Below, piece after piece: positions 3,990 through 19,967 of a stretch of DNA of 20,475 nt. The stretch lies in IMG/VR virus record IMGVR_UViG_3300023184_000618, positions 1 to 20,475 of that record; one strand, given 5' to 3'. The notes beneath the pieces were generated by a model. That model was given only the letters and a program-made list of their open reading frames with translations. It was not told the origin of the DNA and did not search any database. This DNA is from a virus. The first letter of the stretch is position 1. Each line of letters starts with the position of its first letter. Position numbers and translations under genes: made by a program.

Positions 3990-5555
3990 TTAGCGCCTTA
4001 CGCTGATGAATGGCATCGGCGGGATTATGTTATCTCCGTGGTCTCTCAGCTGGGTATCAATGCTGTTATCGTAGGTTTGTAGCAATTGTAGCATACGCAC
4101 CGTCAGCACTGTGCTCATAACCAAGTCATCAGTTTCTCCTATTTTGGCTGCATAGCCTGCACCAGAAGCCACAAAGGTTTTGAGTTCGCTAACCAGGCTT
4201 GAACTGCGTACCTTCATGCGTCCAGATTCAATCAAGGTTTTTAACTTGTTGCAGGCCGCCAGCTTGGGTTTATTTGTAGTATTAAATCCTTTGCGGTATC
4301 TCTTATTTCCGCCATTGTGCGGGTCACTTAGAAAATAGCCCTGTATGTTTTCTTCACCGTATTCATCAATACTGATCAGTGCAGCTTCACCAATGGTATT
4401 GTTTTCTATGCTGTAATATATTTTTTGTGGATCCTTGACTGTTTCGTTAATGTGGGCACAAATAGCCGCTAAAATGCGAACCTGCTCGGGTATGGGTGTT
4501 CTGTTATGACGCCACTCAGCCACTTGTTCCGTGGTTTCTGCTTCAAATATTTGTATAGCAGCGGCATCACCACCAGTGCCCAGACTAGGGTCAAGTCCAA
4601 TTACATAAGTGCGTCCTGCCTTAGGGCGCTGATACCAACGAACCTGCCCAGTTTTATACAAGGGTTCATGCCCTTGCAAATCTAATAATTTAGTTGGTGC
4701 TATAAGTGTCTCATCATTTATAACAAATTCGCAACCCATCTCACGGCGGAAACGATCATCACCTAGCTGTGCCCGCTGTTCGCTGGCCCATTTTTCATCA
4801 CGGTCTGGATGCTCGTTCCAATAGCTACGATAGCTTTTAAATCCATTGATACCAACATCAGTAGGATTACCAAATTCATCCTCGCACTTGAGGGCGCCTT
4901 TCCACAACAGGGCAAACTGATCTTCGTCGCTGTTTGGTGTTGATGTAATAATTGCTTTACCACCAGTGGCCAAGGTAGGGCTAATGGATGTCCAGAACTC
5001 TTTGGCAATGCCCGGACGGACGAACGCAAACTCGTCACAGTATAGGAGTGATATACTCATACCACGACCGGTGTTTTCTGTTGTGGTAGTTGAAACTATG
5101 CGTGATCCGTTTTCAAAGTCCAAATTACCTTTATTGTAACTGGTAACGCCTGCACGGATATGATCTGGGCACAGCTCGTAGGCATAGCGGATACGTTGCA
5201 TGATCTCTTGTGAGCCGGTGTATTTGTGTGCGGCAATTAAAATTGTTGAATCTGGGCGGAACATGGCTACCCATAGCAAGTAGCCAGCGGCACTGGTACT
5301 CTTACCGGTTTGTCGCGGCATCATGCTGATACTGAAGCGATAGTTGTGATAGGTATCTATCAGTCGCTTTTGATAGTCAAACGGATGATACAACATCTTG
5401 CCTTTGGTAGGATGCTGGATATGAAAAAAGTTATCAAGAAAATATTGCGGACCTGTAACAGGGTCAGCACATTTTACAAACTCCTCTAACTGTTGGTCAG
5501 TAAAGGCTGTCTTCTTGTATGGCGTTTTAACTAACGTGGATTCGGTTTGGCTCAT
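3990..5555 (-). CDS. 17: Terminase large subunit (gp17): packaging ATPase and nuclease
   Basis: 521 aa; T4 gp17 has 610. The motor sits on the prohead portal, hydrolyses ATP to pump DNA in, and cuts the concatemer. ATPase domain: Walker A MPRQTGKS at about 79-86, Walker B LLYCDEF with D174/E175, and coupling motif ITSTPN at about 206. RNase H-like nuclease domain: D322 in VIGLDPSLGTGG, E384 in YYSIENNT, and D476/D477 in DDLVMSTVL, matching the Asp-Glu-Asp triad of T4 gp17. The start ATG overlaps the stop of the radical SAM gene (ATGA) and has no clear Shine-Dalgarno sequence, so translational coupling is likely. The usual partner gp16 is not adjacent but about 7.5 kb upstream in the same direction. 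Confidence 0.96.
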   Translation of the reverse strand: MSQTESTLVKTPYKKTAFTDQQLEEFVKCADPVTGPQYFLDNFFHIQHPTKGKMLYHPFDYQKRLIDTYHNYRFSISMMPRQTGKSTSAAGYLLWVAMFRPDSTILIAAHKYTGSQEIMQRIRYAYELCPDHIRAGVTSYNKGNLDFENGSRIVSTTTTENTGRGMSISLLYCDEFAFVRPGIAKEFWTSISPTLATGGKAIITSTPNSDEDQFALLWKGALKCEDEFGNPTDVGINGFKSYRSYWNEHPDRDEKWASEQRAQLGDDRFRREMGCEFVINDETLIAPTKLLDLQGHEPLYKTGQVRWYQRPKAGRTYVIGLDPSLGTGGDAAAIQIFEAETTEQVAEWRHNRTPIPEQVRILAAICAHINETVKDPQKIYYSIENNTIGEAALISIDEYGEENIQGYFLSDPHNGGNKRYRKGFNTTNKPKLAACNKLKTLIESGRMKVRSSSLVSELKTFVASGAGYAAKIGETDDLVMSTVLTVRMLQLLQTYDNSIDTQLRDHGDNIIPPMPFISVRR

Positions 5556-6673
5556 AATAATGTTGCTAGCTCAGGCCATAGTTGTTCAAAGCGGCCTGCT
5601 GCACCAGCATGATATTTACTTTCAATTTCGGCGATGTGATTTATAAATTCTGGTAACAAATTATTGCTGGCTTGCTGATGTCGAGCTTCGGTTTCTTGCA
5701 AGAAGTTGCGTTGACCATGGTCTAGATCTGGTTTACTTAACACTGTTCGTAATTCTGTAAGGGCCAACTGTCTAACTTCAGGTCCTAGTTGTAACGGATC
5801 TAAATAGACTGGATGATACAGGCTTTGCCAATGCACAGGCACAGCTTGCTCTTGTGCCCACTCAATCAATTCAGACAGTCTGGTAGCGTTGTAAATGTTG
5901 TAAAGCGGATGTATGCCCAACCTATGTCCAGCACAGGATTGTATTGTTTTGATATTGCGTTCTGTCTGCGACCAGTTACCGCCGTAACGCACATACTCAA
6001 AACGTTCACCCGTGTTGTCGATGCTGATGTTCCAACCCACACGAGATCGTTGGGCCAATTTTTCAAATATTCTATTACTGGCTAAATCTACACCTAGATT
6101 GGTTATAACATCAACCTGACAGTCTGCAGGTATTACATCTAACAATCGTTCGTTTTCTTTTAACAACAAGGGTTCACCACCAATTAGGGCTACTTTTTTG
6201 ATATGAGTTTGATGTTGTTCAAGATAGTCGCACACCTGATCTGCATAGGGCCTGGTTCCGGACTGGGTTGACAATTGTTTTAAGCTGGCCCATTGACTGC
6301 TGCTGTGTTCGTTGCAGTAGTTACAACTGAAATTACAAGTAGTATTCCAGCGTATATCAATCAGCACAGGATAGTGTTCTACATCTGCGGCCTTGTTGGC
6401 ATCAAAGCCAGGATTTATTCTATTGTGCCAGTCACGTTCACTGCGCCCGTAACGTTCGGCCTGCACACAGTTGTGGCAATACTGAGCATGTGGACGGCCC
6501 TCACGTAGGGTTTGACGTATTTCTTGCAAGACTGGGCCATGCAGAATCTCCTCAATAGTTTGGCTGTTTAAATTGCCCAACATGTTAGGATCGCCTGCAC
6601 AGCAAGTTTTGACACTGCCTTGTGGATTGATGTGCAGGCCTCTCCACGGAGCTGCACACAAGAAATTGCTCAT
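5552..6673 (-). CDS. Twitch-type radical SAM protein
   Basis: 373 aa. A radical SAM enzyme: a [4Fe-4S] cluster cleaves S-adenosylmethionine to start radical chemistry; substrate unknown. The cluster motif is CNFSCNYC (C113, C117, C120), followed by GGEP at about 165 (SAM binding) and a barrel-type core ending near residue 300. An N-terminal accessory-cluster (twitch/SPASM-like) segment precedes it, with C6, C24/C25, C66 and C69 in CAAPW, TCCAG and CHNC contexts. This order, accessory segment first, matches the twitch-domain radical SAM family I recall from phages and bacterial surface-polysaccharide loci. The gene lies between a secreted nuclease and gp17, overlapping the latter by 4 nt. The start codon sits in a hairpin and lacks a Shine-Dalgarno sequence. 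Peptide, sugar or nucleotide modification are all possible. Confidence 0.9.
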   Translation of the reverse strand: MSNFLCAAPWRGLHINPQGSVKTCCAGDPNMLGNLNSQTIEEILHGPVLQEIRQTLREGRPHAQYCHNCVQAERYGRSERDWHNRINPGFDANKAADVEHYPVLIDIRWNTTCNFSCNYCNEHSSSQWASLKQLSTQSGTRPYADQVCDYLEQHQTHIKKVALIGGEPLLLKENERLLDVIPADCQVDVITNLGVDLASNRIFEKLAQRSRVGWNISIDNTGERFEYVRYGGNWSQTERNIKTIQSCAGHRLGIHPLYNIYNATRLSELIEWAQEQAVPVHWQSLYHPVYLDPLQLGPEVRQLALTELRTVLSKPDLDHGQRNFLQETEARHQQASNNLLPEFINHIAEIESKYHAGAAGRFEQLWPELATLL

Positions 6674-6695: not shown

Positions 6696-7409
6696 TTACT
6701 GTCCTAAATTAAACTGCATACCAGTAGCCTGTTCAATTACAGACATTGGAACTTGATATTTAGGCAAGTCCTGAACTGGTAGTGCGGCATTGGGCATTAG
6801 ATAGGCTTGAACATTACGACTGTTCTTTTCAATGATAATCTTATACAAACGAGTTGGAACACCTAGTCCATTGCCTACTACCTGGTGTCCAGGATCGTAA
6901 ATACCACCTGAGATGATGTAGAAGTCTGTGCCTGGCGTTGCGGCCCATTGGCGTTCCCAAGTTTCCAACTGCTTCCAAATGCCGCGATTGTTGTTGGCCA
7001 CTTGTGCCACCATATTTGATAAGAAGAAGCTTTCACTCATAACCGCATCGTTGATGGTATTGTTGCCAGCTGGACTCATGTGTCCACGATCATGTGTCCG
7101 TCCCAGCACAGCATAGTCAGCCAACTGTGCTTGACACTGCGTTGCTACTGCTGGATCAGGACGAAAGTTGTCTCGGCGTTTGGCTGGGCCTGACATAGTG
7201 GCCACGGTTAAATGTTCAAACACAGCCACCGGTGCTTTGACACTGCAACGATGTATGACTGCATAGTTTGTTTTGCACAGTTCTTGATCGCCTGGCTCGG
7301 GTTGATACTGTGGTGTGCCGTTGACTGTGAATTGTGGGCACTGCTGATTGATCTGGGCAAGGGCAAATACTGGTGCTAGTAATACAAGGGTTAATAATAT
7401 TTTTTTCAT
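6696..7409 (-). CDS. Exported DNA/RNA non-specific endonuclease (NUC1/Serratia nuclease type)
   Basis: 237 aa from the ATG at 7409. A longer frame opens at 7445, but the internal start gives a clear Sec signal peptide (MKKILLTLVLLAPVFALA, cleavage near A18/Q19) and fits the 10-nt gap to the upstream gene. The beta-beta-alpha-metal motif is DRGHMSPAGN (D107-N116), with H110 as the general base. N132 in FFLSNMVAQ matches the Mg2+-binding Asn, and WKQLETWER plus IISGGIYD follow in the family's order. The mature part has four cysteines, compatible with two disulfides in the periplasm. The catalytic core looks complete. The enzyme would cut DNA and RNA outside the cytoplasm; whether it serves scavenging, entry, exclusion of rival DNA or is virion-borne cannot be told. 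It is unusual within a late structural operon. Confidence 0.9.
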   Translation of the reverse strand: MKKILLTLVLLAPVFALAQINQQCPQFTVNGTPQYQPEPGDQELCKTNYAVIHRCSVKAPVAVFEHLTVATMSGPAKRRDNFRPDPAVATQCQAQLADYAVLGRTHDRGHMSPAGNNTINDAVMSESFFLSNMVAQVANNNRGIWKQLETWERQWAATPGTDFYIISGGIYDPGHQVVGNGLGVPTRLYKIIIEKNSRNVQAYLMPNAALPVQDLPKYQVPMSVIEQATGMQFNLGQ

Positions 7410-7419
7410 GCACTCATCT

Positions 7420-9078
7420 TTAATTTGTAAGTTCACTCCAACCAAATTTCCAAATTAAGTCAGCGTTGTTGTTGTTATATCCTGCACATAAGGTCAGTGT
7501 TATTGGTGTACCATTGGCATATCTAGACAGTTGTAATCTACGTGCCACATCTTCTCCAACTGTGAAAGTGTCGCGGCTGCTAGTAACACCAGCATAGACC
7601 ACTGTTCCGTCGCCAATTTGAACAGCACTGGTATTGGCCTGCACCACGCTGCCGCTGACATTGGCATAGGTCAAGCCAGCCACGTTGCTGGCATTTAGCA
7701 CCAGTTGGAAACACCCATACTGCACATCGGTGAGTAGTAAATCTATCTGCGATGGCACAACCACAGCATCTATATAAGCAGGATTGAGTCTAATAGTGGC
7801 CAAGTTGGTATACACATTGCCTGTGGATAATCGTGTGGGACTTATTCCACTGCCAACATACTGTATGGTAGGAGTTGGTGAGAATCCACCCTCACTAATA
7901 ACAGTGCTACAGATTTGTTTCATAGTTTTGACGCCACCAATGGCCGTAGTATTGGTAATCTCGTAGCGTGGATTCAGCGTAGCTGAGGTCATATAGACCT
8001 TGGTATTGCCTGTTTGGTTCGCGTGTTGGAAAGTGTGGCACACTATAAACTGACCATTGATGATAAATCCTGCACGAACATTTCCTACTCCTAGCCATTC
8101 AATGTCGGCCCAGAATATTTGAGTCAATGTAGGGTCAAGATTTATTCCCGACGGATTGGGGCTAGCACCTGTTTTAAGTGTGTCGGTGTTCCACGAAGTT
8201 TGTGCTATGCGTTCTTCAACAATGGATCCCGATGCCGATGATCTAATCACAAGATAAAGAGTGGTGCCATTGGCTTCAAAATATACACCATTGTTAGCAG
8301 TAAAGTAGCCCACACGTTGACGACAACCTGCTTCAAGAGCACCAAACGCAAAGGTATTCATGGTCAACAAGCTCTTGCCTGGTTGATAGGCCTGTGTGGT
8401 TCGGGCTTGATTAATTACACTGGAGCCATTGGCTGAAGTCACTGATAGGTTGAATGAGCTTTCGTTGGCCACATAAGTAATGCTACCACTGTTAGCTGTA
8501 ACGTTGCTAAACTGCCCACCATCAATATACATGTTTTGACTGTCAAACAATGTGTAAGGTTCACTTACTCGTAAACGACCAAACGCATCAAGATTGGTTC
8601 CACCTATAGTTGTTGCAACATTGCCGCCAGCCACTGTGACATTGCCTGACACTGACCAAGGAGTTGTTCCTTGTGTAACATTGACGTTGCCCAGTATGCC
8701 AACATTGCCGGCCACATTGGCATTGCCTGTGATGCTTACCGATCCTGTTATCGGATTCACCGTTACATTGCCGGTGATGCCGGCTATGTTGCCGGTAATG
8801 CCGGCTATGTTTCCAACAACAACCACGTTGGCGTTACCTAGTATGCCAACGTTGCCAGATACAGGCATAGTGTTGCTAGAATTGTAAATGTCTATATTTC
8901 CTAGCTCAATAACATGAGCATCAACATTGCCAGGAATATTTACGTTGCCACTAATAATAATGTTGCCAAGAAATCCAGTTCGGAGATACACGTTGCCCGA
9001 CACCTCGTCGAGGGCCAGTGCTTGATTGATGTTACGTAGGTACCACGGTGCTACGTTTGATGGTTCTGGGTAGGCCAT
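7420..9078 (-). CDS. GN-repeat virion structural protein, fibre-like
   Basis: 552 aa. The N-terminal 24 residues lead into a long low-complexity region (about 25-170) built of short units ending in GNV, GNI or GNA (for example IAGITGN, VGILGN, VSGNV), typical of an elongated beta-solenoid or trimeric fibre shaft. A junction DAFGRLRVSEPYTLFDSQ (about 166-183) starts a globular C-terminal domain of about 370 residues; FGRLR-type domains occur in other phage structural proteins. There is no catalytic motif. The start ATG overlaps the TAA of the preceding small gene (TAATG), and the AAAGGA Shine-Dalgarno lies inside that gene's last codons. It is likely a fibre or surface decoration protein on head or tail; receptor or glycan binding is inferred only. 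Confidence 0.7.
   Translation of the reverse strand: MAYPEPSNVAPWYLRNINQALALDEVSGNVYLRTGFLGNIIISGNVNIPGNVDAHVIELGNIDIYNSSNTMPVSGNVGILGNANVVVVGNIAGITGNIAGITGNVTVNPITGSVSITGNANVAGNVGILGNVNVTQGTTPWSVSGNVTVAGGNVATTIGGTNLDAFGRLRVSEPYTLFDSQNMYIDGGQFSNVTANSGSITYVANESSFNLSVTSANGSSVINQARTTQAYQPGKSLLTMNTFAFGALEAGCRQRVGYFTANNGVYFEANGTTLYLVIRSSASGSIVEERIAQTSWNTDTLKTGASPNPSGINLDPTLTQIFWADIEWLGVGNVRAGFIINGQFIVCHTFQHANQTGNTKVYMTSATLNPRYEITNTTAIGGVKTMKQICSTVISEGGFSPTPTIQYVGSGISPTRLSTGNVYTNLATIRLNPAYIDAVVVPSQIDLLLTDVQYGCFQLVLNASNVAGLTYANVSGSVVQANTSAVQIGDGTVVYAGVTSSRDTFTVGEDVARRLQLSRYANGTPITLTLCAGYNNNNADLIWKFGWSELTN
8768..8809 (-). repeat. 21-bp tandem repeat (two copies) within the GN-repeat gene
   Basis: 8768-8788 and 8789-8809 differ at a single base and encode two successive IAGITGN units. 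This near-identical pair lies in a longer array of degenerate GN units and suggests recent slippage or recombination changing the shaft length. Confidence 0.7.
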
Positions 9079-9464
9079 TATCTAGGATATCCTTTGAATG
9101 CCTTTACAGGACTTGTTTTATCTACTGTGGATGGTTCTTCACTTTTAGCTGTGCTTACTAGTTCTTTGCCGCCTGGCGTGTTTGTCATGGCCAAGGCCTT
9201 GTCAATTACTTTTTCAATGTTATTATTCATGCCTACAACAACACCATGTTCACCAAATGCTGTTTCTGGGCTCCACGCTGGAAGATTTTTAGCCATTCCA
9301 TCTATGCCAGCATCGCTTCTTGCTCGTGCCATGGCCACACCAAATCGATAATTGCGATAAGGATCTGCGGCACTGAGTCCAGGAATTATATAAGTGTAAC
9401 GCATTGGTTCAGCTTCTTCAGGAGGAAGATTGCGTTGCTCTACTATAAACTCTCGTGCTCTCAT
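9078..9464 (-). CDS. Small protein with capsid-targeting-like N-terminus (tandem paralogue B)
   Basis: 128 aa, unknown function. The N-terminus MRAREFIVE|QRN resembles a cleavable targeting peptide ending in IxE, the T4 gp21 protease motif, though Gln at P1' is atypical. The centre has YRNYRFGVAMARARSDAG and AWSPETAFGEHG, which correspond by eye to YELNRVMMAVAMADG and SWSGRYNTAHPY in the preceding gene. The C-terminus SPVKAFKGYPR matches that gene's SPVVAFKGYPR. The start overlaps the upstream stop (ATGA), with AAAGGA 8 nt before the ATG inside the upstream coding sequence. It is probably a diverged duplicate and possibly an internal head protein. Confidence 0.7.
   Translation of the reverse strand: MRAREFIVEQRNLPPEEAEPMRYTYIIPGLSAADPYRNYRFGVAMARARSDAGIDGMAKNLPAWSPETAFGEHGVVVGMNNNIEKVIDKALAMTNTPGGKELVSTAKSEEPSTVDKTSPVKAFKGYPR
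9080..9102 (-). repeat. 23-bp gene-junction repeat, copy 1
   Basis: Identical to 9463-9485. It encodes the C-terminal FKGYPR of the 128-aa protein and contains AAAGGA, the Shine-Dalgarno sequence for the GN-repeat gene. Confidence 0.75.
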
Positions 9465-9835
9465 CTAGGATATCCTTTGAATGCCACCACTGGGCTATGA
9501 ACATGTGTGGATTCTACTTCTTGACTACGATTATCACCTGCGTTGAGATCGTACGTTTCACTGCCGGTGGCTTGTAAAGCCTGTTTCAGCATGGCTGCTT
9601 CTTCGTCAGTGTAAGGATGTGCAGTATTGTAGCGACCGGACCATGATTCAGTATCTAAATCCAATGGCTTTCCTGATCCATCAGCCATGGCCACGGCCAT
9701 CATTACACGATTTAATTCATAGGTACGATCGTAGCCGCCAAAGTCACGAAATTTAGTAAGGCCTCGAGTTCCGGCCTGACGGCGTTTGCCAATCTTGCCA
9801 ACACGTTTCTCAATGAGAAACTCAGCTGCTCGCAT
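9461..9835 (-). CDS. Small protein with capsid-targeting-like N-terminus (tandem paralogue A)
   Basis: 124 aa, unknown function. It begins MRAAEFLIE|KRVGKIGKRRQ: a 9-residue peptide ending in LxE, as in T4 prohead-protease sites, followed by a basic stretch. The middle contains YELNRVMMAVAMADG and AHPYTDEEAAMLKQAL, and the end is SPVVAFKGYPR, shared with the next gene. AGGA lies 8 nt before the ATG. There are 2 nt between the stop of the 97-aa gene and this start, and a 4-nt overlap with the next gene. It is likely a soluble internal or core-associated head protein, an inference from the N-terminus and position. Confidence 0.7.
   Translation of the reverse strand: MRAAEFLIEKRVGKIGKRRQAGTRGLTKFRDFGGYDRTYELNRVMMAVAMADGSGKPLDLDTESWSGRYNTAHPYTDEEAAMLKQALQATGSETYDLNAGDNRSQEVESTHVHSPVVAFKGYPR
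9463..9485 (-). repeat. 23-bp gene-junction repeat, copy 2
   Basis: Identical to 9080-9102, 383 bp apart. It encodes FKGYPR of the 124-aa protein and supplies AAAGGA as ribosome binding site to the 128-aa gene, so one sequence serves both as a C-terminal tag and as translational coupling signal. Confidence 0.75.
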
Positions 9836-10136: not shown

Positions 10137-12434
10137 TTAACCTTTGTAATTTTGCCAAGTCTTGAACAAGTTACGCTCAAGTGCAATTGACTCTTCCATG
10201 CTGGCTTGGCGACGTAACTGGCTGGCCAATACTGGTGTTGTTGATTGACCGGTACTCTTAGGACCATTCAATCCGCCGGAGTATGTGCGTAGATTAGGAT
10301 CTGCCGCCAACGTTTCTGTATTGGTTGGCCAGTCTGGTGCGTTTTCATCTACCATTTGATCGCAACCACATGGGCTACCACCGCATGTTGGGCAGGCCTT
10401 GGGAATTTGACTTTCAAGTCCGGCCAACTTCAACAACATCATCAACTTGGCTGCTTCTTCACCGTCAGCAGTGACAGTAATTGCAGGCGCCATTTCACCA
10501 TCACCACATTCTTGCATCTTAGATTCAATAGAGATACTTTCAGTAATCATCTTTTCAATTGAATTGTTGAGGCTTTCGTAAACGCCTTTGCCAAACTGCA
10601 TGCCTTTGCTGGGCTTACCGCTTGGAGAGGCAGTGGCTACTGATCCGGACACTGTTGTTTCATCAACTTTTTCTTCTTTGGCTTTTTTGGCTTTGCCGCC
10701 TTGCTCGTCTTTGCCCAGGCGTCCAGCAACTACATCACCCTGTGTGACTTTGTCGTAGGGCTTGGCATTGTTGGCCAAGTTGCCATCGTTTGCCTCGTCA
10801 GTCTTTTTGACTTTCTTAGGCAACTTACTGATGTCTTTGCCCTTGTCTGCTTGATTGAATTCTTTGGCCACTTTGGTAGCTACTCCAACTTTTTTAGCAA
10901 ACTTAGGATTGTGTGCAGCTCCGGCCATCATACGTGCCTGTGATTGACTGACTGATTTTTCTTTTAGTTGGTCAACACCGCCCAATGTATTATTACTTTG
11001 TTGCAACTTGTATCGCAATAGTTTGGTCAGCTCCGCTTGAGCTTTCATTCCGTCTGGATCTTTGATGAATGGTTTGAGAAACATGGCCAAACGATATGCT
11101 TGTTGAATTTCACCGCCAGAGAAGTCAGCACTTTCGGGCACTATGGTAATGCCTTCACGGCCCATGTGCTGTTCGGCATCGCGCTCGTGTGTGCTGAGAA
11201 TATAGTCAGTGACACTGCTCATCATGCCTTTGATTTGACCAATCTTTTCTTGCACCCATTCTGGCATGTTCTCATTGCCGCGCAAAGCACCTTCAAGTTC
11301 TCTTGCGTGACGAACAATAGTATGTAATGAGTCTTTGGTCATTCCGGCCTCGTCGTTGTATTCACCTTGTTCAGCCGGGCTAACACTTTCACTGCTCATG
11401 TTGCTGGGGCGAGTCATCATTACGCCATCGCTGTCAAGATCTTCTTTGGTCTTGGTTGGACGGCCGCTTTTGTATTTGTAACTTTTAGCTGTCACACGTT
11501 CTGGTCGTTTTTCTTTGGCAGGACGTCCTTTTTTCTTAGGACCGTCTGATACTGCGGCTTTTTTCTTGTTCTTCAAGTTGCCGTGTTCATCATAGTCATC
11601 GTCATTGCCAGTGTCATCACGGTCACTGCGATAGCCATACTTTTTATGACGGTTGCGTTCGCTTTCACTGTCAGTGTTGACACCTTTCATTGAACCTTGT
11701 GCTCCTTTGAGCAAGCGCATATCTAGTTCTTCAAGGTTTGAATTGTCGGTAAACTCTTTGCCGCCAACTTTGAATTTGCCACCTTTAGGAGTTTTAGCCA
11801 ATGCGCCTGTAAATGCGTTGCCTTCATCAGTCATGCCCTGGCTTTCGTCATACTTGTCATAACGGTTGCGAATCGTGCTCATAGTTTTGTCACTGGCATG
11901 TTCACGACCGGCTTTTTGCAGGGCCTTCATGCCCTTCTCGCCATATTTCTTTTTACCAATGGCTGCTTGAAATGCTGACTCGTCCATGCTATCGCATTTA
12001 CAAGGACTGCAATCACAAGTTGGGCACATACCTTCTTCAAGATTACTAGTGTCTTTAAATGTCTTGTCGCCTAGTTTGAAACTGCCACCTTTTGGTGTCT
12101 TGGCCAGTGCACCTGTAAATGCATTACCTTCGTTTTCGATATCTTCTTTAGGATGACGCAGTTTGTTTAGCACTGCACCGGCCACACGCTCGCCGGCGGC
12201 CTTTGAACCATAACGCTTGCCTGCATCAGCTGCAATCTTGCCAAATGCCTTGCCTGGCTTGCCAATGTCTTTGCCGGCACGGGCTGCTTTGGCTGAATAA
12301 CTGGATTCATCTAGTGCTTTTGTCAACGGACTCTTGGCAACAGCTTCGGCCTTTTTACTTTCAGCAAGGTTTTGCTGCTCGGTCTTGGCAGACAACTCTG
12401 CTAGTTTCTTATTTAGGTCGTAAAAAAATGTCAT
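10137..12434 (-). CDS. Lys/Asp-rich repeat protein with Cys knuckles and AT-hook-like motifs
   Basis: 765 aa, function unknown. The N-terminus MTFFYDLNKKLAELSAKTEQQ leads to NLAE|S near residue 25, a match to prohead-protease motifs. Two near-identical units beginning GNAFTGALAKTPKGG lie at about 102-134 and 204-236, each ending NLEE. Two Cys knuckles share the pattern CPTCxxSPCxCD, at about 136-147 (right after the first unit) and 681-692. Between them are AT-hook-like KKKGRPAKEKRP and KSGRPTKTKED at about 298-330, then coiled-coil-prone Lys/Glu segments. Composition is highly charged and probably largely disordered. GAGG lies 9 nt before the ATG. A DNA-associated internal or core head protein is the best guess from motifs and neighbours. 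A scaffold is the alternative. Confidence 0.75.
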   Translation of the reverse strand: MTFFYDLNKKLAELSAKTEQQNLAESKKAEAVAKSPLTKALDESSYSAKAARAGKDIGKPGKAFGKIAADAGKRYGSKAAGERVAGAVLNKLRHPKEDIENEGNAFTGALAKTPKGGSFKLGDKTFKDTSNLEEGMCPTCDCSPCKCDSMDESAFQAAIGKKKYGEKGMKALQKAGREHASDKTMSTIRNRYDKYDESQGMTDEGNAFTGALAKTPKGGKFKVGGKEFTDNSNLEELDMRLLKGAQGSMKGVNTDSESERNRHKKYGYRSDRDDTGNDDDYDEHGNLKNKKKAAVSDGPKKKGRPAKEKRPERVTAKSYKYKSGRPTKTKEDLDSDGVMMTRPSNMSSESVSPAEQGEYNDEAGMTKDSLHTIVRHARELEGALRGNENMPEWVQEKIGQIKGMMSSVTDYILSTHERDAEQHMGREGITIVPESADFSGGEIQQAYRLAMFLKPFIKDPDGMKAQAELTKLLRYKLQQSNNTLGGVDQLKEKSVSQSQARMMAGAAHNPKFAKKVGVATKVAKEFNQADKGKDISKLPKKVKKTDEANDGNLANNAKPYDKVTQGDVVAGRLGKDEQGGKAKKAKEEKVDETTVSGSVATASPSGKPSKGMQFGKGVYESLNNSIEKMITESISIESKMQECGDGEMAPAITVTADGEEAAKLMMLLKLAGLESQIPKACPTCGGSPCGCDQMVDENAPDWPTNTETLAADPNLRTYSGGLNGPKSTGQSTTPVLASQLRRQASMEESIALERNLFKTWQNYKG

Positions 12435-12439
12435 TGCTA

Positions 12440-13048
12440 TTATCCTCTTGGGTTGGCACCAGTGGCTGGGCGTGGTGGGCGTTTTACTTTGGTCATTGGG
12501 CTAGTATTACCCATTGGCAAATCGTTGGTTGTTTTTGCAGCCGGTGTCTTACCACCAGCTACAGTGAAGTCACTACGATATTCGTTTTTTAACACAGCAT
12601 GTTGGTCATAAGGAGCAGAATAGTCTTTGCTCAGTGCCTTTTGTGCAGCATCTGGAGCAGGATAGTCTGTGTCAGTCAACAAGTTTTTGTTTTCAGCTTC
12701 AACCTTTTCACGCTCAATATCCATGCCCACTTCGTGTGGCACAGTCAACATGATGATTCTGTTTGGATCTAAGAACAACAGTTGAGCAATTTCTTTGATC
12801 TGTGGCTCGATAGCTGGATAGCGGAATTCCACATCCATGCTGGTCACCGAGTCGTTGCTGTGCTTGGGAAAGTCGGCCGGTTTGAGTTGAACCGGAGTGG
12901 TCTTTGGCTTGCTGATTTTTACAACTTCAAACTGTTTGAGTCGTTCTTCTAACTGCTTGATAAAATCAGGTGCAACATCACCTACAATTTTAATGCGATA
13001 ATTGTAAGTTCTTTCGCTTTCTGCGAGGTATTGTTGAAAATTTTTCAT
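12440..13048 (-). CDS. Putative internal head protein with T4-like capsid-targeting sequence
   Basis: 202 aa. The first ten residues, MKNFQQYLAE, closely resemble the T4 internal-protein capsid-targeting peptide MKTYQEFIAE and are followed by Ser, a suitable P1' for cleavage by gp21-type prohead protease. Residues about 14-110 look like a compact alpha/beta domain (YNYRIKIVGDVAPDFIKQLE, then VTSMDVEFRYPAIEPQIKEI and RIIMLTVPHEVG). The rest (about 115-202) is polar, Pro/Lys-rich and probably disordered, ending KVKRPPRPATGANPRG. An AGGGA Shine-Dalgarno lies 8 nt before the ATG, and a CATAAATA late promoter lies 18 nt upstream, overlapping the gp16 stop. Function after entry or in the capsid is unknown. 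Confidence 0.75.
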   Translation of the reverse strand: MKNFQQYLAESERTYNYRIKIVGDVAPDFIKQLEERLKQFEVVKISKPKTTPVQLKPADFPKHSNDSVTSMDVEFRYPAIEPQIKEIAQLLFLDPNRIIMLTVPHEVGMDIEREKVEAENKNLLTDTDYPAPDAAQKALSKDYSAPYDQHAVLKNEYRSDFTVAGGKTPAAKTTNDLPMGNTSPMTKVKRPPRPATGANPRG

Positions 13049-13066: not shown

Positions 13067-13074
13067 TATTTATG
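13067..13074 (-). promoter_or_regulatory. Late promoter (CATAAATA) for the 202-aa gene
   Basis: The minus strand reads CATAAATA, one mismatch to T4 late TATAAATA, 18 nt upstream of the ATG at 13048 and overlapping the stop codon of gp16 (13070-13072). The same 8-mer precedes gp19 at a similar distance, which supports a phage-specific late element. Confidence 0.55.
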
Positions 13075-13558
13075 CTTTTATATTGTTTTGCGAGGTTGTG
13101 GCTATGAGTCGTTCCAGCAAGTCGTTACGACTCAGCACTTGTCCATGCGCTGTTTCCATGGCTTCTTCGGGCGCATTACGCAGTTTGTCTTGATCCATTT
13201 TCAACTTTTTCAACTGCAAATCAACCATTTTTAATTTTTTGTTCAGCTTGGTGGTTTTGGCTGTGAGTGCATGGCCCAACATGCTGCTGGCCACGGCAAA
13301 TATTTCACCTGAGTAGCGGCTGTCAACTTGCATACCCAAGTCCATCAAGTCATTGAATGTTTCTGTGGCTTTTGAAGCCAGTTCGTCCAGCTCTTGGTCG
13401 CCGGTTTCCAAGTCGCGCACTGTGGGCAGGGCTGCATCTATCTTGTCTATGGTAGCGTCTATTTCGGCCAGCTGGGTACGGGTTTGCTCAACAGTAGGAG
13501 TCGCTTCGGGCTGTTCCGAAGGCGGGAAATCAAAGAGTTCTTCCAATTTTCTGGTCAT
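13070..13558 (-). CDS. 16: Probable terminase small subunit (gp16-like)
   Basis: 162 aa, against 164 in T4 gp16. The T4 protein forms ring oligomers that regulate gp17 and recognise DNA. Here residues 23-48 are helical, and residues about 69-128 (from NDLMDLGMQVDS through EIFAVASSMLGHALTAKT to LKKLKMDQDKLRN) follow the pattern of the T4 central coiled-coil region (LMDAAKIFLE, MEVFATLMGQMTTTN, ILKLHKDMKDI). The tails are acidic and variable. The identification is by eye and less certain than for gp17. It follows gp4 after 29 nt with a weak Shine-Dalgarno sequence. The usual gp16-gp17 adjacency is broken. Confidence 0.65.
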   Translation of the reverse strand: MTRKLEELFDFPPSEQPEATPTVEQTRTQLAEIDATIDKIDAALPTVRDLETGDQELDELASKATETFNDLMDLGMQVDSRYSGEIFAVASSMLGHALTAKTTKLNKKLKMVDLQLKKLKMDQDKLRNAPEEAMETAHGQVLSRNDLLERLIATTSQNNIKA

Positions 13559-13587: not shown

Positions 13588-14022
13588 TTATTTCTTACCG
13601 CCTTGATGGTAAATCATGTCTTCGTTGATAACCCTGAATGTAAGCCCGTTGCGTTTGGCCCATTTGGTGGCGGCATCCCACTTGGCATAGTTCAGTGCCA
13701 CAATAGCACGATCTCGGTCTGACGCCTTACTTTCAAGTAGGCTTTGCTTTTTAGGTTTAATTTCAATCAGTTCCGCAATGGTGGTGTTGTTGCGTCCACG
13801 ATAGGTCACTAGGAAATCTGGAATATAAACACTTTGCTTGCCAGTTAGCGGATTACGATATGGTATGCGAATACTTTCGCTGGCCCATTGTAACACATTA
13901 TCGTTTGAATCCAGGAACATCATAAAGGTAAGTTCCCAACCAGATCTATATTTGGGCGTGCCTTTGCCCACATATTTGGCAACATTTTTTACTGTGTATG
14001 GGCCTTGACGAAAGTTGGGCAT
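13588..14022 (-). CDS. 4: Head completion protein, T4 gp4 / TnsA-like nuclease fold
   Basis: 144 aa from the ATG at 14022; a TTG two codons upstream is less likely because AGGG lies 7 nt before the ATG. T4 gp4 (50/65) finishes the filled head so that tails can attach. The fold is PD-(D/E)XK-like: E30 in YRSGWELTF, D69 in YIPDF and E87/K89 in LIEIKPKK, with KYVGKGTPKYRS near the start. The final region (AKWDAATKWAKRNGLTFRVINED) matches the C-terminal helix-strand of the family. The nuclease residues are all present, so activity is possible, though gp4 action at the head is not fully explained. The preceding gene stops 2 nt upstream of this ATG. Confidence 0.85.
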   Translation of the reverse strand: MPNFRQGPYTVKNVAKYVGKGTPKYRSGWELTFMMFLDSNDNVLQWASESIRIPYRNPLTGKQSVYIPDFLVTYRGRNNTTIAELIEIKPKKQSLLESKASDRDRAIVALNYAKWDAATKWAKRNGLTFRVINEDMIYHQGGKK

Positions 14023-14024
14023 GA

Positions 14025-14390
14025 TCAAGCCCTGATGTTTCTTGCCGTATAAAAGTTAGGCGTAGATGGTGCCAGCACACCCAATAAGGTAGCAGGACTA
14101 CGAATTGTGTTAAGGTAGTAGGCCATCAGTATGGTCACTTCAGGCTCCGAAGATCCGCCTTGCTGAAACGTTTGTAATAGATCCAACACATTGACGTTGC
14201 TAAACTCTGCTACTCTGAACAAACTGCTGGTCATATTTTGTGCAGCAGCATCAGTTAGAAAAACGCTTCTAAAATAACTCAATACTGCATCAAACTCTGT
14301 GGCAGGTATATTGGCATCATAATTGTAGAATTGATCAAAAATTCTAACAGTTTGATCAATTGAATAGTTGGTACTATTGACTGTGGTCAC
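14025..14390 (-). CDS. Small conserved-looking virion-module protein of unknown function
   Basis: 121 aa. It starts at GTG (14390), made credible by a perfect AGGAGG 9 nt upstream. The sequence looks alpha-helical (TEFDAVLSYFRSVFLTDAAAQ, FSNVNVLDLLQTFQQGG, VTILMAYYLNTIRSPATLLG). Similar short proteins near neck and tail genes seem familiar from marine T4-like phages, but I cannot name the family. The position between the tail-tube-like gene and gp4 suggests a neck or tail assembly role. Confidence 0.75.
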   Translation of the reverse strand: MTTVNSTNYSIDQTVRIFDQFYNYDANIPATEFDAVLSYFRSVFLTDAAAQNMTSSLFRVAEFSNVNVLDLLQTFQQGGSSEPEVTILMAYYLNTIRSPATLLGVLAPSTPNFYTARNIRA

Positions 14391-16283: not shown

Positions 16284-19200
16284 TTAACTGGCAGTAGCCA
16301 CTGTGCTGATACTAGAACTAATTGCTCCAGTGTTCTGAATACGCAATGGAATGTAGATAAATTCAACCGATTTAACTGGTTCAATTGCAATATCAACATA
16401 CAATTCGTTGGCATCAATTGTGGCTGGTGAGTTGTTACTTAAATCGCAAACCACTAGGTAATCATAGATACCACGTTTTGCTACCAAGTCAAGCATTAAA
16501 CTAGTGCATGAGTTGGTAATTTGATTGCGTGTGATTTGATCATTGGGCTCAAACAAATATTGGTTACCAATTTCTTGTAAACGACCACGTATAAATGCAA
16601 CCAAACGTGCCACGTTGATGCGGTCCAAGGCACTTGAAACATTGGTAGCTGTTTTGTTACCAAAGTTAGTGATACCAATGCCTGGAATAAATGTAATTGG
16701 GTTGATATCCAACTGATACAATACATCTCTCAGATTTTGGCTCACACCAATGGTTGTAAATTCACCAGTTTGGCCATTTACATAACCCAGCAATGCCGCA
16801 TTGTCAATTACACCACGCAGTGTTCCTGCTGGCGCTAACCAAGGATACGCAATTTCGTCACTGCGAATAATTGTGCGAATCATCATGTGGCTTGGTGGTT
16901 GAACCACTGGGCTACCTGACAAATCAGTGGTCTGACAACTTGGATAGAACACGCCCAGGTATGGATCAAATGACCCTTGACCGTCGGCTGTGACTAATCC
17001 GGCGCCGTCATTGTTACTATGCCAAGCGGCAAGTGAAGTGCCATCTGGTCCTAAACGCAATGGAGTATCACCGATCACAAATGCAGTGTTCTTACGATCA
17101 TTGTTGAGTTCAACCATGTTGATCATCAACTCAGGATACTGAGGGCAAGCAATCAAGTTAAATTGACGCTGTTCTTCGCGAGCTTGCTCGCTGGTATCAA
17201 TACCACTCTTGAGTGCAGCAACAATAATAGCACGTTGTGCCAGGCGACCCATGTATGGCGATCCGTCATTTCTGTTACCGCTGGCATTGACCCAAGTGTT
17301 AACTGTACCATTTTCCGCAGTCAATGCAGACCAATATGTGGCATTAGTTGGAGCAATATTTGCTGTAGGAGGTGTGGTTAAGCAAACATAAATTGTGCCA
17401 TTGTAGTTGACAAAATCGTTATACACATAAGATGTAGTGCTGTCATACACCGGAACATTAAAATCAGATGTATTAAAATAATCACCTTGGAATTCTTTTA
17501 CATTAAATCCGCTTCTACGTGTGTTCCACAACAGTGTACCTTGTGGATATAGTGTAGCTTCAGGAGCATCTAAATCCAAGTAGTTACTGGTTAACAAGCT
17601 GGTGATTGATGGAAGTGTGCCGGTTACTGGATTGGCCTGGCCATTTGGCGACCAACGAGCATCTGCAAACACAATACCATTTTGTGTTGTTTGATCTGTG
17701 TTGTTAATTGTTACCCACTGGTCCGTACCGTCTATATTACTCCAACGATTGATCAGTGGGTAATTTTCTAAATCACTGGTGTCGATCCATAGATCACCAT
17801 AAACCAATGGACTTTGTGCTGTATTGGTTTGTGTGGTAGGAGCTGTAGTGCTGAATATAGGGCCTGCAGCATTAGTCAATGACAAATCATCGCCGCGAAC
17901 ATCGTTATCTACGTTTTGATAACCCATCCACATACCATTGTTCTGAATCATGATGTCAGCTTGTGTAGTAGCTGAGTAATACCAATAAGTTCCATTGTCT
18001 GGATCTTGGTCTGGTCCAGTGGTGCTGGCTGTATAAGTGAATGTTGGTGCGGTTACCCAGTAACTTAAAATCAAGTCGTCATCTGCACCAGCACGACAGA
18101 ATTCAGTGCTGACACTAAATCCAGCAGTTGAAACTGGGTTACCACTGCCAACTGTAGTATCAGTCAACACAATAGTTCCGCCTGCGTTGTGAGTGAAAAC
18201 AATTGCTCCTGCACTATTAACTGTAGCAGTTACGTAGGATGCAAATGTTGAAGAGCCAACTGCGGCACTGACTGCTGTTAAGAAATCAGCTACTGTTGTT
18301 CCAGCCAAGGTTGCTGTTACTGCTGCACCCAAGGTAGATTGTCCTGGTATAGTTGCAGCAATAGTGAATGTATTTCCGTTTACAAACGGACCAGGTGTAT
18401 CGTCAGATCCTGTTACAATTGTTGATCCTGCGGCGTATCTTTCAAAAATCTGAACGCCTAATGTGGCTGGATCGTTGTATTCAGGATTGGTTGTGGCCAC
18501 TGTGGTTCCGGCTACAATATTCTTACCACCGCCAGATGGATCCAATGTGTAGGTGGCTTCGGACAGCGTTGAATATATGTTACATGCCTGCTGAACATAG
18601 GCGCCCAACAATGTGCTGTATTTTTTAAGTGATAAATTGGCGCCAAGATTTACGCTGTTGGTGCGTTGCCATACAGAACCAGTTGGTTCTGGTTGAGTAT
18701 CTGTAGATCTCCAACGTGGTGCTGAATAGTTAGGAGCAGCTAAGAATGCAGGTGGGTAATACACGCCTGCACTAATACCAACATCACTCAATGCTGTTCC
18801 GCTTGCACCAGGCAGGACCGAAACTACGCCAGGTTGTGAAATTGTTCCACCACTGACATATGACGCAGTAACAGTGCTGGCAAATGATACCGTAGAATTA
18901 CCGCAAGCGGTTACTGTGTAAGTTCCGTTATAACCACTAGGATTAACGTTGGCTACTGTGATTGAAGAGCCAACTGCATATGGTGCTTGTGACAAGGTAG
19001 CGAATGTCAATGTGGCTACTGTTCCGTTTCCTGTGGCATTGCCCACTGAAGGATTTGCACCAAGTGTAGTGCTGTCAGCATAAATCTGTAACTTGCTGTC
19101 AACAAACGCAGAATAAACACCAGTGATAGCGGCACTGTTGATTGCATCGCTGAGACCTTCAAGTGTATTGTTAGGACTGACTGGAACTGCAACAGAAGTA

Positions 19201-19967
19201 GCGTTGATATAAACAATATTATTGGCAGTCAGTGTGGTTACCGAATTGGTTCCTTGCACTGTTGGCCAGGCTGTTTTCCAATCATCGCTACCAACTTCCA
19301 CCCAGGTATTGTAAGCGTCAGACAAGGTAGTGTCAGAGGTTTGACTGCTGGTTGGTCCACCGCGCTTGTAGTAGCCAGGATTGTTGATGTTGGTAGCAGT
19401 GATGGCATAATCGCCAATTGATCCAATGCTTTGCAATGGTACAGTGGTGTTACCAGTCAGTTGTGTTGTGTCTGTAATCACCATTGGCACTTGATTGGTA
19501 AAAGCAGCGGTGGTTTGATTCCATTGAGATATTCCCCATAGACTGTTGGTTGTGTCTAACCAATAAGTTCCGTTAGGAGGAGTACCAACTGGGCGAATCA
19601 AACTGGCTGTCAATGCTGACAAGTCAACGTCAACACGTTGAACATACGCACGATTTGTAATGCCTAATGCGCTGTAAGCAGCCAATAAGCCATATTCATT
19701 CAGTTCGTAACCGTTGATCGGTGTACCAGCTGTGGTTTTGTAAAAGAACGGAACACCGTATGTTGCAGACAAATCGCGCTGGCTGGTAATCAAATATACC
19801 TTGTTAGCGTTGGCTTTTAATGTGCCGGCCGCAACACCTACGCCTGTGCCAGAAACTTTGTTCTGTGCAGTAGCAAGTAAAATATAAGGTACTGAGTTGA
19901 CTGCAGCCGGAATATATTGACTTTGGTCAACAACGGTAACTTCTACGCCAGGTGATAAGAGTGCCAT
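16284..19967 (-). CDS. 18: Tail sheath protein (gp18), greatly enlarged
   Basis: 1227 aa, about twice T4 gp18 (659). It forms the contractile outer sheath. The N-terminus (MALLSPGVEVTVVDQSQYIP, then PYILLATAQNK and YGVPFF) and the C-terminal 320 residues (about 905-1227: IDTSEQAREEQRQFN, NDRKNTAFVIGDTP, IAYPWLAPAGTLRGVIDN, INPITFIPGIGITNFGNKT, INVARLVAFIRGRLQEI, LYVDIAIEPVKSVEFIYIP) are typical sheath. Between them (about 160-900) lies a very large inserted region of Thr/Ser/Gly/Asn-rich beta modules: NTLEGLSDAINSA (about 266-278), a YNGTYTVT module (about 349), a second IN-like module (about 545-600), NGTYWxx and GDLWIDT motifs (about 131, 656, 726) and a CBM5/12-like segment (about 838-885). 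AAGGA lies 8 nt before the ATG, and an exact TATAAATA lies upstream. The inserts should protrude from the tail surface. Confidence 0.93.
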   Translation of the reverse strand: MALLSPGVEVTVVDQSQYIPAAVNSVPYILLATAQNKVSGTGVGVAAGTLKANANKVYLITSQRDLSATYGVPFFYKTTAGTPINGYELNEYGLLAAYSALGITNRAYVQRVDVDLSALTASLIRPVGTPPNGTYWLDTTNSLWGISQWNQTTAAFTNQVPMVITDTTQLTGNTTVPLQSIGSIGDYAITATNINNPGYYKRGGPTSSQTSDTTLSDAYNTWVEVGSDDWKTAWPTVQGTNSVTTLTANNIVYINATSVAVPVSPNNTLEGLSDAINSAAITGVYSAFVDSKLQIYADSTTLGANPSVGNATGNGTVATLTFATLSQAPYAVGSSITVANVNPSGYNGTYTVTACGNSTVSFASTVTASYVSGGTISQPGVVSVLPGASGTALSDVGISAGVYYPPAFLAAPNYSAPRWRSTDTQPEPTGSVWQRTNSVNLGANLSLKKYSTLLGAYVQQACNIYSTLSEATYTLDPSGGGKNIVAGTTVATTNPEYNDPATLGVQIFERYAAGSTIVTGSDDTPGPFVNGNTFTIAATIPGQSTLGAAVTATLAGTTVADFLTAVSAAVGSSTFASYVTATVNSAGAIVFTHNAGGTIVLTDTTVGSGNPVSTAGFSVSTEFCRAGADDDLILSYWVTAPTFTYTASTTGPDQDPDNGTYWYYSATTQADIMIQNNGMWMGYQNVDNDVRGDDLSLTNAAGPIFSTTAPTTQTNTAQSPLVYGDLWIDTSDLENYPLINRWSNIDGTDQWVTINNTDQTTQNGIVFADARWSPNGQANPVTGTLPSITSLLTSNYLDLDAPEATLYPQGTLLWNTRRSGFNVKEFQGDYFNTSDFNVPVYDSTTSYVYNDFVNYNGTIYVCLTTPPTANIAPTNATYWSALTAENGTVNTWVNASGNRNDGSPYMGRLAQRAIIVAALKSGIDTSEQAREEQRQFNLIACPQYPELMINMVELNNDRKNTAFVIGDTPLRLGPDGTSLAAWHSNNDGAGLVTADGQGSFDPYLGVFYPSCQTTDLSGSPVVQPPSHMMIRTIIRSDEIAYPWLAPAGTLRGVIDNAALLGYVNGQTGEFTTIGVSQNLRDVLYQLDINPITFIPGIGITNFGNKTATNVSSALDRINVARLVAFIRGRLQEIGNQYLFEPNDQITRNQITNSCTSLMLDLVAKRGIYDYLVVCDLSNNSPATIDANELYVDIAIEPVKSVEFIYIPLRIQNTGAISSSISTVATAS

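What the first reader, a model, noticed from the sequence alone, without database searches (positions are those of the whole stretch)
12440..13048. 202-aa protein with a near-copy of the T4 capsid-targeting sequence
MKNFQQYLAE|S aligns with the T4 internal-protein targeting peptide MKTYQEFIAE|A: same length, same Met-Lys start, Q and A-E conserved, conservative F/Y and L/I changes, and a small residue after the cut. In T4 this peptide sends IPI-IPIII into the prohead, where gp21 removes it and the protein is later injected. I infer the same route for this unrelated-looking protein, making it a candidate injected effector.
Basis: partly seen in the sequence, partly recalled or inferred. Interest (0 to 1): 0.65.

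Follow-up and report, generated by a model that had tools for sequence, protein, structure and literature searches.

The report
Capsid-targeting-like tag on jumbo-phage virion protein
A conserved structural protein of giant T4-like phages begins with a ten-residue peptide that keeps exactly the residues phage T4 uses to send proteins into its growing head and clip them there, so it is probably a head-targeted virion part rather than an injected effector.

Summary
The ORF at 12440-13048 lies on the minus strand (202 aa) and starts MKNFQQYLAE|S, 5/10 identical to the T4 internal-protein signal MKTYQEFIAE. It is not chance: the T4-type decapeptide occurs at 6 of 1,800 N-termini in six related contigs, all six being this gene, and at 0 of 8,044 internal Mets. 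Across 76 non-redundant homologues, positions 2, 4, 7, 8 and 10 (critical in T4) are nearly invariant, while 3, 5, 6 and 9 vary.

Relatives carry a gp21 (S77) protease and a gp23 whose inferred cut site, YLxE|N, resembles YLAE|S. Other proteins in these genomes, including two in this window, start with a related peptide, M[KR]AxEF[ILV]xE.

"Unrelated-looking injected effector" is not supported. The protein is a single-copy, syntenic virion protein of RaK2-, CBB-, 121Q- and PA5oct-like jumbo phages, found by mass spectrometry in CBB and PA5oct virions. It has a ferredoxin-like domain and is acidic in most relatives. Glu10 is replaced by D, S or A in several lineages, so cutting is not universal.

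Best reading: prohead targeting by an N-terminal helix, clipped by gp21 in this clade. Cleavage and location inside the head are not shown.

The parts
12440..13048 (-). 202-aa virion structural protein (RaK2 ORF047 / CBB_210 / PA5oct EST35_0202 family, phrog_14802)
13019..13048 (-). N-terminal capsid-targeting-like decapeptide MKNFQQYLAE; inferred gp21-type cut after Glu10 (between 13019 and 13018)
   Evidence: T4 rules from PMC9026906
12695..13012 (-). residues 13-118: predicted ferredoxin-like beta-alpha-beta-beta-alpha-beta domain plus a helix
   Evidence: AlphaFold2 model, pLDDT mostly 76-91; Foldseek to S6/GlnK-type folds, weak
12443..12694 (-). residues 119-202: low-confidence, Pro/Lys-rich C-terminal tail
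   Evidence: (pLDDT 45-67)
13070..13558 (-). upstream syntenic gene, weakly like small terminase subunit
   Evidence: phrog_445 E=0.004, phrog_16202; a gene in this position is also present in PA5oct, RaK2, CBB
13588..14028 (-). TnsA-like head-completion (gp4) protein, syntenic landmark
   Evidence: phrog_218, PF08722
10137..12434 (-). downstream 765-aa virion protein
   Evidence: phrog_16759/25121/22033
10632..10664 (-). DE|TTVSGSVAT motif in the 765-aa protein, like the gp23 post-cleavage arm
9438..9464 (-). MRAREFIVE, related N-terminal peptide on the 128-aa ORF 9078-9464
9809..9835 (-). MRAAEFLIE, related N-terminal peptide on the 124-aa ORF 9461-9835

Best explanation
The protein is the clade's version of a conserved virion structural protein of T4-related jumbo phages. 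Its first ten residues form a short amphipathic helix that works like the T4 capsid-targeting sequence: Lys2, Phe4 and Tyr7 dock the protein to the prohead core during assembly, and the gp21-type protease then cuts after Leu8-Ala9-Glu10, leaving the ferredoxin-like domain and its tail in the mature head. Shown here: the sequence, its conservation pattern, the protease and the matching gp23 site in relatives, and (in other phages) virion presence of homologues. Inferred: docking to the core, cleavage, and location inside the head. Injection is not supported by any evidence here.
For: The most conserved five of positions 2-10 are exactly 2, 4, 7, 8 and 10 (0.04 bits on average, against 1.84 for 3, 5, 6, 9 and 1.10 for residues 13-118; best of 126 choices). 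In T4 IPIII, targeting depends mainly on residues 4 and 7 and processing on 8 and 10 (PMC9026906). Conservation is at protein level: Leu8 uses six codons. Gp21 homologues occur in relatives and isolates. The clade's gp23 has YLRE|NAS, YLKE|NAS or HLAE|NAT at the position equivalent to the T4 cut, close to YLAE|S. The peptide is a lower-confidence helix (4-10, pLDDT 65) just outside the folded domain. Unrelated proteins of these phages share M[KR][AS]xEF[ILV]xE N-termini, 14/1,800 against 0/8,044 internal. PA5oct and CBB homologues are in virions by mass spectrometry.
Against: Position 10 is A in PA5oct and XaC1, S in Phosso and 7t3, D in RaK2, BF, XbC2, Hallingskeid and L194, though gp23 of PA5oct keeps Glu, so cutting is not a family trait. 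The peptide aligns without gaps with the rest of the family, so it may be an integral helix. An amphipathic helix alone would give conserved 4/7/8. No N-terminal sequencing or head localisation exists here.
Confidence: 0.55

Rival explanations
1. The N-terminal helix is a permanent docking element of a structural (head, neck or tail-completion) protein and is never cut; the match to the T4 signal is convergence of an amphipathic helix with a Glu at its end.
For: Positions 4, 7 and 8 are hydrophobic or aromatic in all 13 isolate homologues while Glu10 is D/S/A in many; the gene sits among tail-tube, head-completion and terminase genes.
Against: Within the window's clade Glu10 is kept in 75/76 non-redundant sequences including marine ones at 42-46% identity, while neighbours 9 and 11 vary; gp23 cut sites have the same L-x-E form.
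Confidence: 0.33
2. A T4-style internal protein delivered into the host to counter a defence.
For: CTS-like N-terminus; T4 IPI works that way (PMC3012670).
Against: Core single-copy syntenic gene across RaK2-like phages, near-neutral here and acidic (pI 4.4-5.4) in most relatives against 9.6-9.7 for two T4 internal proteins, no accessory or variable behaviour, no match to a defence or effector family in PHROGs or Pfam.
Confidence: 0.08
3. Chance resemblance without functional meaning.
Against:: position-specific conservation across clades and shuffled expectation 0.005.
Confidence: 0.04

Closest known systems
T4 internal proteins (IPI, the 100-aa and 193-aa internal proteins) and their capsid-targeting sequence
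   Same: N-terminal M-K-x-[FY]-x-x-[FY]-[IL]-x-E followed by a small residue; gp21-type protease in relatives
   Different: Conserved core virion gene with a folded ferredoxin-like domain, not basic, not a variable accessory gene; cleavage and encapsidation not shown; Glu10 lost in several homologues (T4 IPI also lacks Glu10: MKTFKEFTST..., with the next [LI]-x-E at ITE19)
RaK2-like 'virion structural protein' (RaK2 ORF047, GAP32_204, CBB_210, 121Q/PBECO4, BF; phrog_14802)
   Same: Homologous along the N-terminal ~110 residues, same gene neighbourhood (tail tubes, TnsA-like gp4, one gene, then this gene)
   Different: Enterobacterial members mostly start MN[KR]LQ..[IF]L[TI][EDSA] and are acidic; C-terminal tails differ
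PA5oct EST35_0202 / MIJ3_00043 (Arenbergviridae)
   Same: Closest annotated gene order; PA5oct protein detected in virions by ESI-MS/MS
   Different: MKSFRDYYDA: targeting residues kept, processing residues lost
Phage P1 DarB N-terminal packaging signal
   Same: N-terminal capsid-targeting principle (PMC9024508)
   Different: Different signal, 30 residues shown sufficient; P1 appears to lack a separate scaffold

Membership tests
T4-type capsid-targeting sequence (CTS) | N-terminal ~10 residues with targeting residues 4 and 7 aromatic/hydrophobic and Lys2 | tested here: met
   K2, Y7 invariant, F4 75/76; T4 roles from PMC9026906
T4-type capsid-targeting sequence (CTS) | L/I-x-E motif at the end of the peptide | tested here: met
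   L8 invariant, E10 75/76 in the clade, but E10 absent in PA5oct, Phosso, RaK2, BF and others; the cut itself was not tested
T4-type capsid-targeting sequence (CTS) | gp21-type prohead protease in the same phage | tested here: inconclusive
   Not in the 20-kb window, which is a fragment; present in 8/11 and 8/10 relative contigs and 7/7 isolate jumbo phages
T4-type capsid-targeting sequence (CTS) | Peptide sufficient to bring a protein into the head, and removed there | not testable with these tools
   Needs fusion and N-terminal mass spectrometry
T4 internal protein (injected) class | Variable, accessory, basic DNA-embedded protein | tested here: not met
   Core syntenic gene; pI 7.8 here and 4.4-5.4 in most relatives
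T4 internal protein (injected) class | Injection into the host | not testable with these tools
   No experiment available here
RaK2-like virion structural protein (phrog_14802) | Sequence homology | tested here: met
   phrog_14802 E=0.0014 for this protein, best 1.7e-16 within the clade, 54/76 members match; tblastn chain to PA5oct, Phosso, RaK2, CBB
RaK2-like virion structural protein (phrog_14802) | Conserved gene order | tested here: met
   Order tube-tube-(gene)-gp4-TerS-like-this gene in the window and PA5oct; tube-tube-gp4-(gene)-this gene in RaK2 and CBB
RaK2-like virion structural protein (phrog_14802) | Presence in the virion | not testable with these tools
   For homologues only: CBB_210 13 peptides, 60.5% coverage (PMC5259590); PA5oct EST35_0202 ESI-MS/MS tag

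The most novel reading that the evidence does not exclude
Jumbo T4-like phages use a shared N-terminal signal code (MKxFxxYLxE and M[KR]AxEF[ILV]xE) to load several unrelated proteins, including a conserved virion core protein, into the prohead or inner body. In some lineages the code is split: the targeting residues are kept while the cleavage residue is lost, leaving an uncut anchor.
Probability: 0.35. Interest if true: 0.65.

Novelty: new variant of a known kind. Interest (0 to 1): 0.48.

Why it matters
From my own knowledge, the T4 targeting peptide is well studied mainly in T4 and close relatives. If the same code works in the RaK2/PA5oct-type jumbo phages, virion proteins loaded into the head could be listed from sequence alone, and the unknown protein make-up of their inner body (seen in phAPEC6 and 121Q, PMC7247149) would become testable. 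It would also give new encapsidation tags for cargo in large capsids.

Tried and rejected
PF03420 in the window's own record: nothing, but the record is only 20 kb. PA5oct homologue as viral-contig query: no relatives. PDB sequence search with the family profile: no meaningful hit. Foldseek against PDB: only generic ferredoxin-like folds (ribosomal S6, GlnK) with TM to the query of about 0.3, so no function drawn. A link between the peptide and mass-spectrometry detection in PA5oct was considered: two (0150, 0238) of three motif proteins are tagged, too few for a test. Idea of an accessory effector rejected because of conserved synteny and charge. Chance match rejected.

Full report
What is there. 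The window is a 20,475-base virus record from a T4-related myovirus. Nearly all genes read on the minus strand: tail sheath 16284-19967, two tail tubes, a 121-aa ORF, a TnsA-like gp4 head-completion protein 13588-14028, a TerS-like gene 13070-13558, the finding's ORF 12440-13048, a 765-aa virion protein 10137-12434, small ORFs, a 552-aa virion protein, a nuclease, a radical SAM protein, large terminase 3990-5555, an 897-aa virion protein and a gp32-like ssDNA-binding protein. The ORF is on the minus strand and encodes 202 aa beginning MKNFQQYLAESERTYNYR.

Is the match real? T4's 100-aa and 193-aa internal proteins start MKTYQEFIAEA, so the decapeptides share 5/10 identities without gaps. Among 1,800 predicted genes of six related contigs the pattern MKx[FY]xx[FY][ILV]xE occurs at six N-termini, all this family, and at none of 8,044 internal Mets; residue shuffles give 0.005 expected. 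Gene calls came from a simple script of my own, and the pattern was chosen after the fact, so the stronger test is conservation. In 76 non-redundant homologues, positions 2, 4, 7, 8 and 10 average 0.04 bits of entropy, positions 3, 5, 6 and 9 average 1.84, and residues 13-118 average 1.10; of the 126 ways to choose five of positions 2-10 this is the most conserved. These are the positions that matter in T4: targeting mainly at 4 and 7, processing at 8 and 10 (PMC9026906). Synonymous codons vary at Leu8, Tyr7 and Phe4, so the constraint is on the protein.

Machinery. Eight of 11 and 8 of 10 relative contigs encode a gp21 (Peptidase_S77) homologue; the others may be fragments. All seven isolate jumbo phages searched have one, with T4 as positive control. 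In the clade, gp23 carries YLRE|NASSG, YLKE|NASAG or HLAE|NATAG at the place aligned with the T4 gp23 cut (FLTE|AEIGG). The candidate site YLAE|S (S, N or T at P1' in relatives) has the same form. The gp23 cut itself is inferred from T4, not measured.

Other carriers. Two further ORFs in the window start MRAREFIVE and MRAAEFLIE. In relatives the pattern M[KR][AS]xEF[ILV]xE starts 14 of 1,800 proteins against 0 of 8,044 internal Mets, and a looser N-terminal pattern occurs on ten clusters of proteins with unrelated bodies. In one contig a 66-aa protein starts MRAQEFIKE|NASVGATSSGSVAT, followed by almost the same residues as the gp23 cut site in that phage, which links this peptide type to gp21 processing.

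What the protein is. tblastn and profile searches connect it to Pseudomonas phage PA5oct EST35_0202, MIJ3, Sinorhizobium phage Phosso, Agrobacterium phage Atu_ph07, Vibrio phage 2.275.O and the RaK2/GAP32/CBB/121Q/BF group. In PA5oct, RaK2 and CBB it lies downstream of the tail-tube and gp4 genes. PA5oct's copy carries an ESI-MS/MS virion tag and CBB_210 was seen with 13 peptides and 60.5% coverage (PMC5259590). AlphaFold2 gives a helix at 4-10 (pLDDT 65), a ferredoxin-like domain to about residue 118 and a low-confidence tail. It is therefore a conserved structural gene, not an accessory effector; most relatives are acidic while two T4 internal proteins are basic.

The complication. Position 10 is Glu in Atu_ph07 (MKTLQDYLTE|S), Vibrio (MKDLNTILTE|S), PBECO4, GAP32 and CBB, but Asp in RaK2, BF, XbC2 and Hallingskeid, Ser in 7t3 and Phosso, and Ala in PA5oct and XaC1. 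In T4, Asp10 blocks cutting but not targeting, and T4 IPI has MKTFKEF without Glu10, its next [LI]-x-E being ITE19. So the family looks like a targeted protein whose clipping is optional, or an uncut N-terminal helix that resembles the signal. I put 0.55 on targeting with clipping in this clade and 0.33 on the uncut-helix reading.

Verdict. Observation confirmed; interpretation partly supported: capsid-targeting-like signal likely, injected effector unlikely. New variant of a known kind.

Noticed in passing
T4 NC_000866 18966-19130 (gp61.1); GAP32_288 218183-218341; Vibrio 2.275.O 16459-16635; G012 148624-148812; G014 62030-62230: Small proteins (52-66 aa) that look like a mimic of gp23's cut site and mature N-arm: e.g. 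GAP32_288 MKKKRVNE|NASSGATSSGSIASV against gp23 MLRE|SATAGATSAGNIAT; T4 gp61.1 MKTFKEFIKE|DMVAGDSGGNPENISIGTTSGAVVNKG against T4 gp23 FLTE|AEIGGDHG... T4 gp61.1 shares MKTFKEF with IPI and sits next to the primase gene; GAP32_288 sits near a primase-helicase gene and between virion structural genes. T4 gp61.1 may be an unrecognised head-targeted protein.
   Followed up: partly
window 10632-10664 (765-aa protein); PA5oct EST35_0203: The same E|[TN]..[SA]G.[IV]A[ST] arm-like motif inside larger virion proteins encoded next to the finding (KVDE|TTVSGSVAT; KVEE|TASAGASSAGGIAS).
   Followed up: partly
window 9078-9464 and 9461-9835: Two adjacent small ORFs with MRAREFIVE / MRAAEFLIE N-termini; in relatives the largest cluster of such proteins (117-133 aa) has 136 sequences.
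   Followed up: partly
window 5552-6673 and 6696-7445: Radical SAM protein and a nuclease whose N-terminus looks like a signal peptide, between virion genes and terminase.
   Followed up: no
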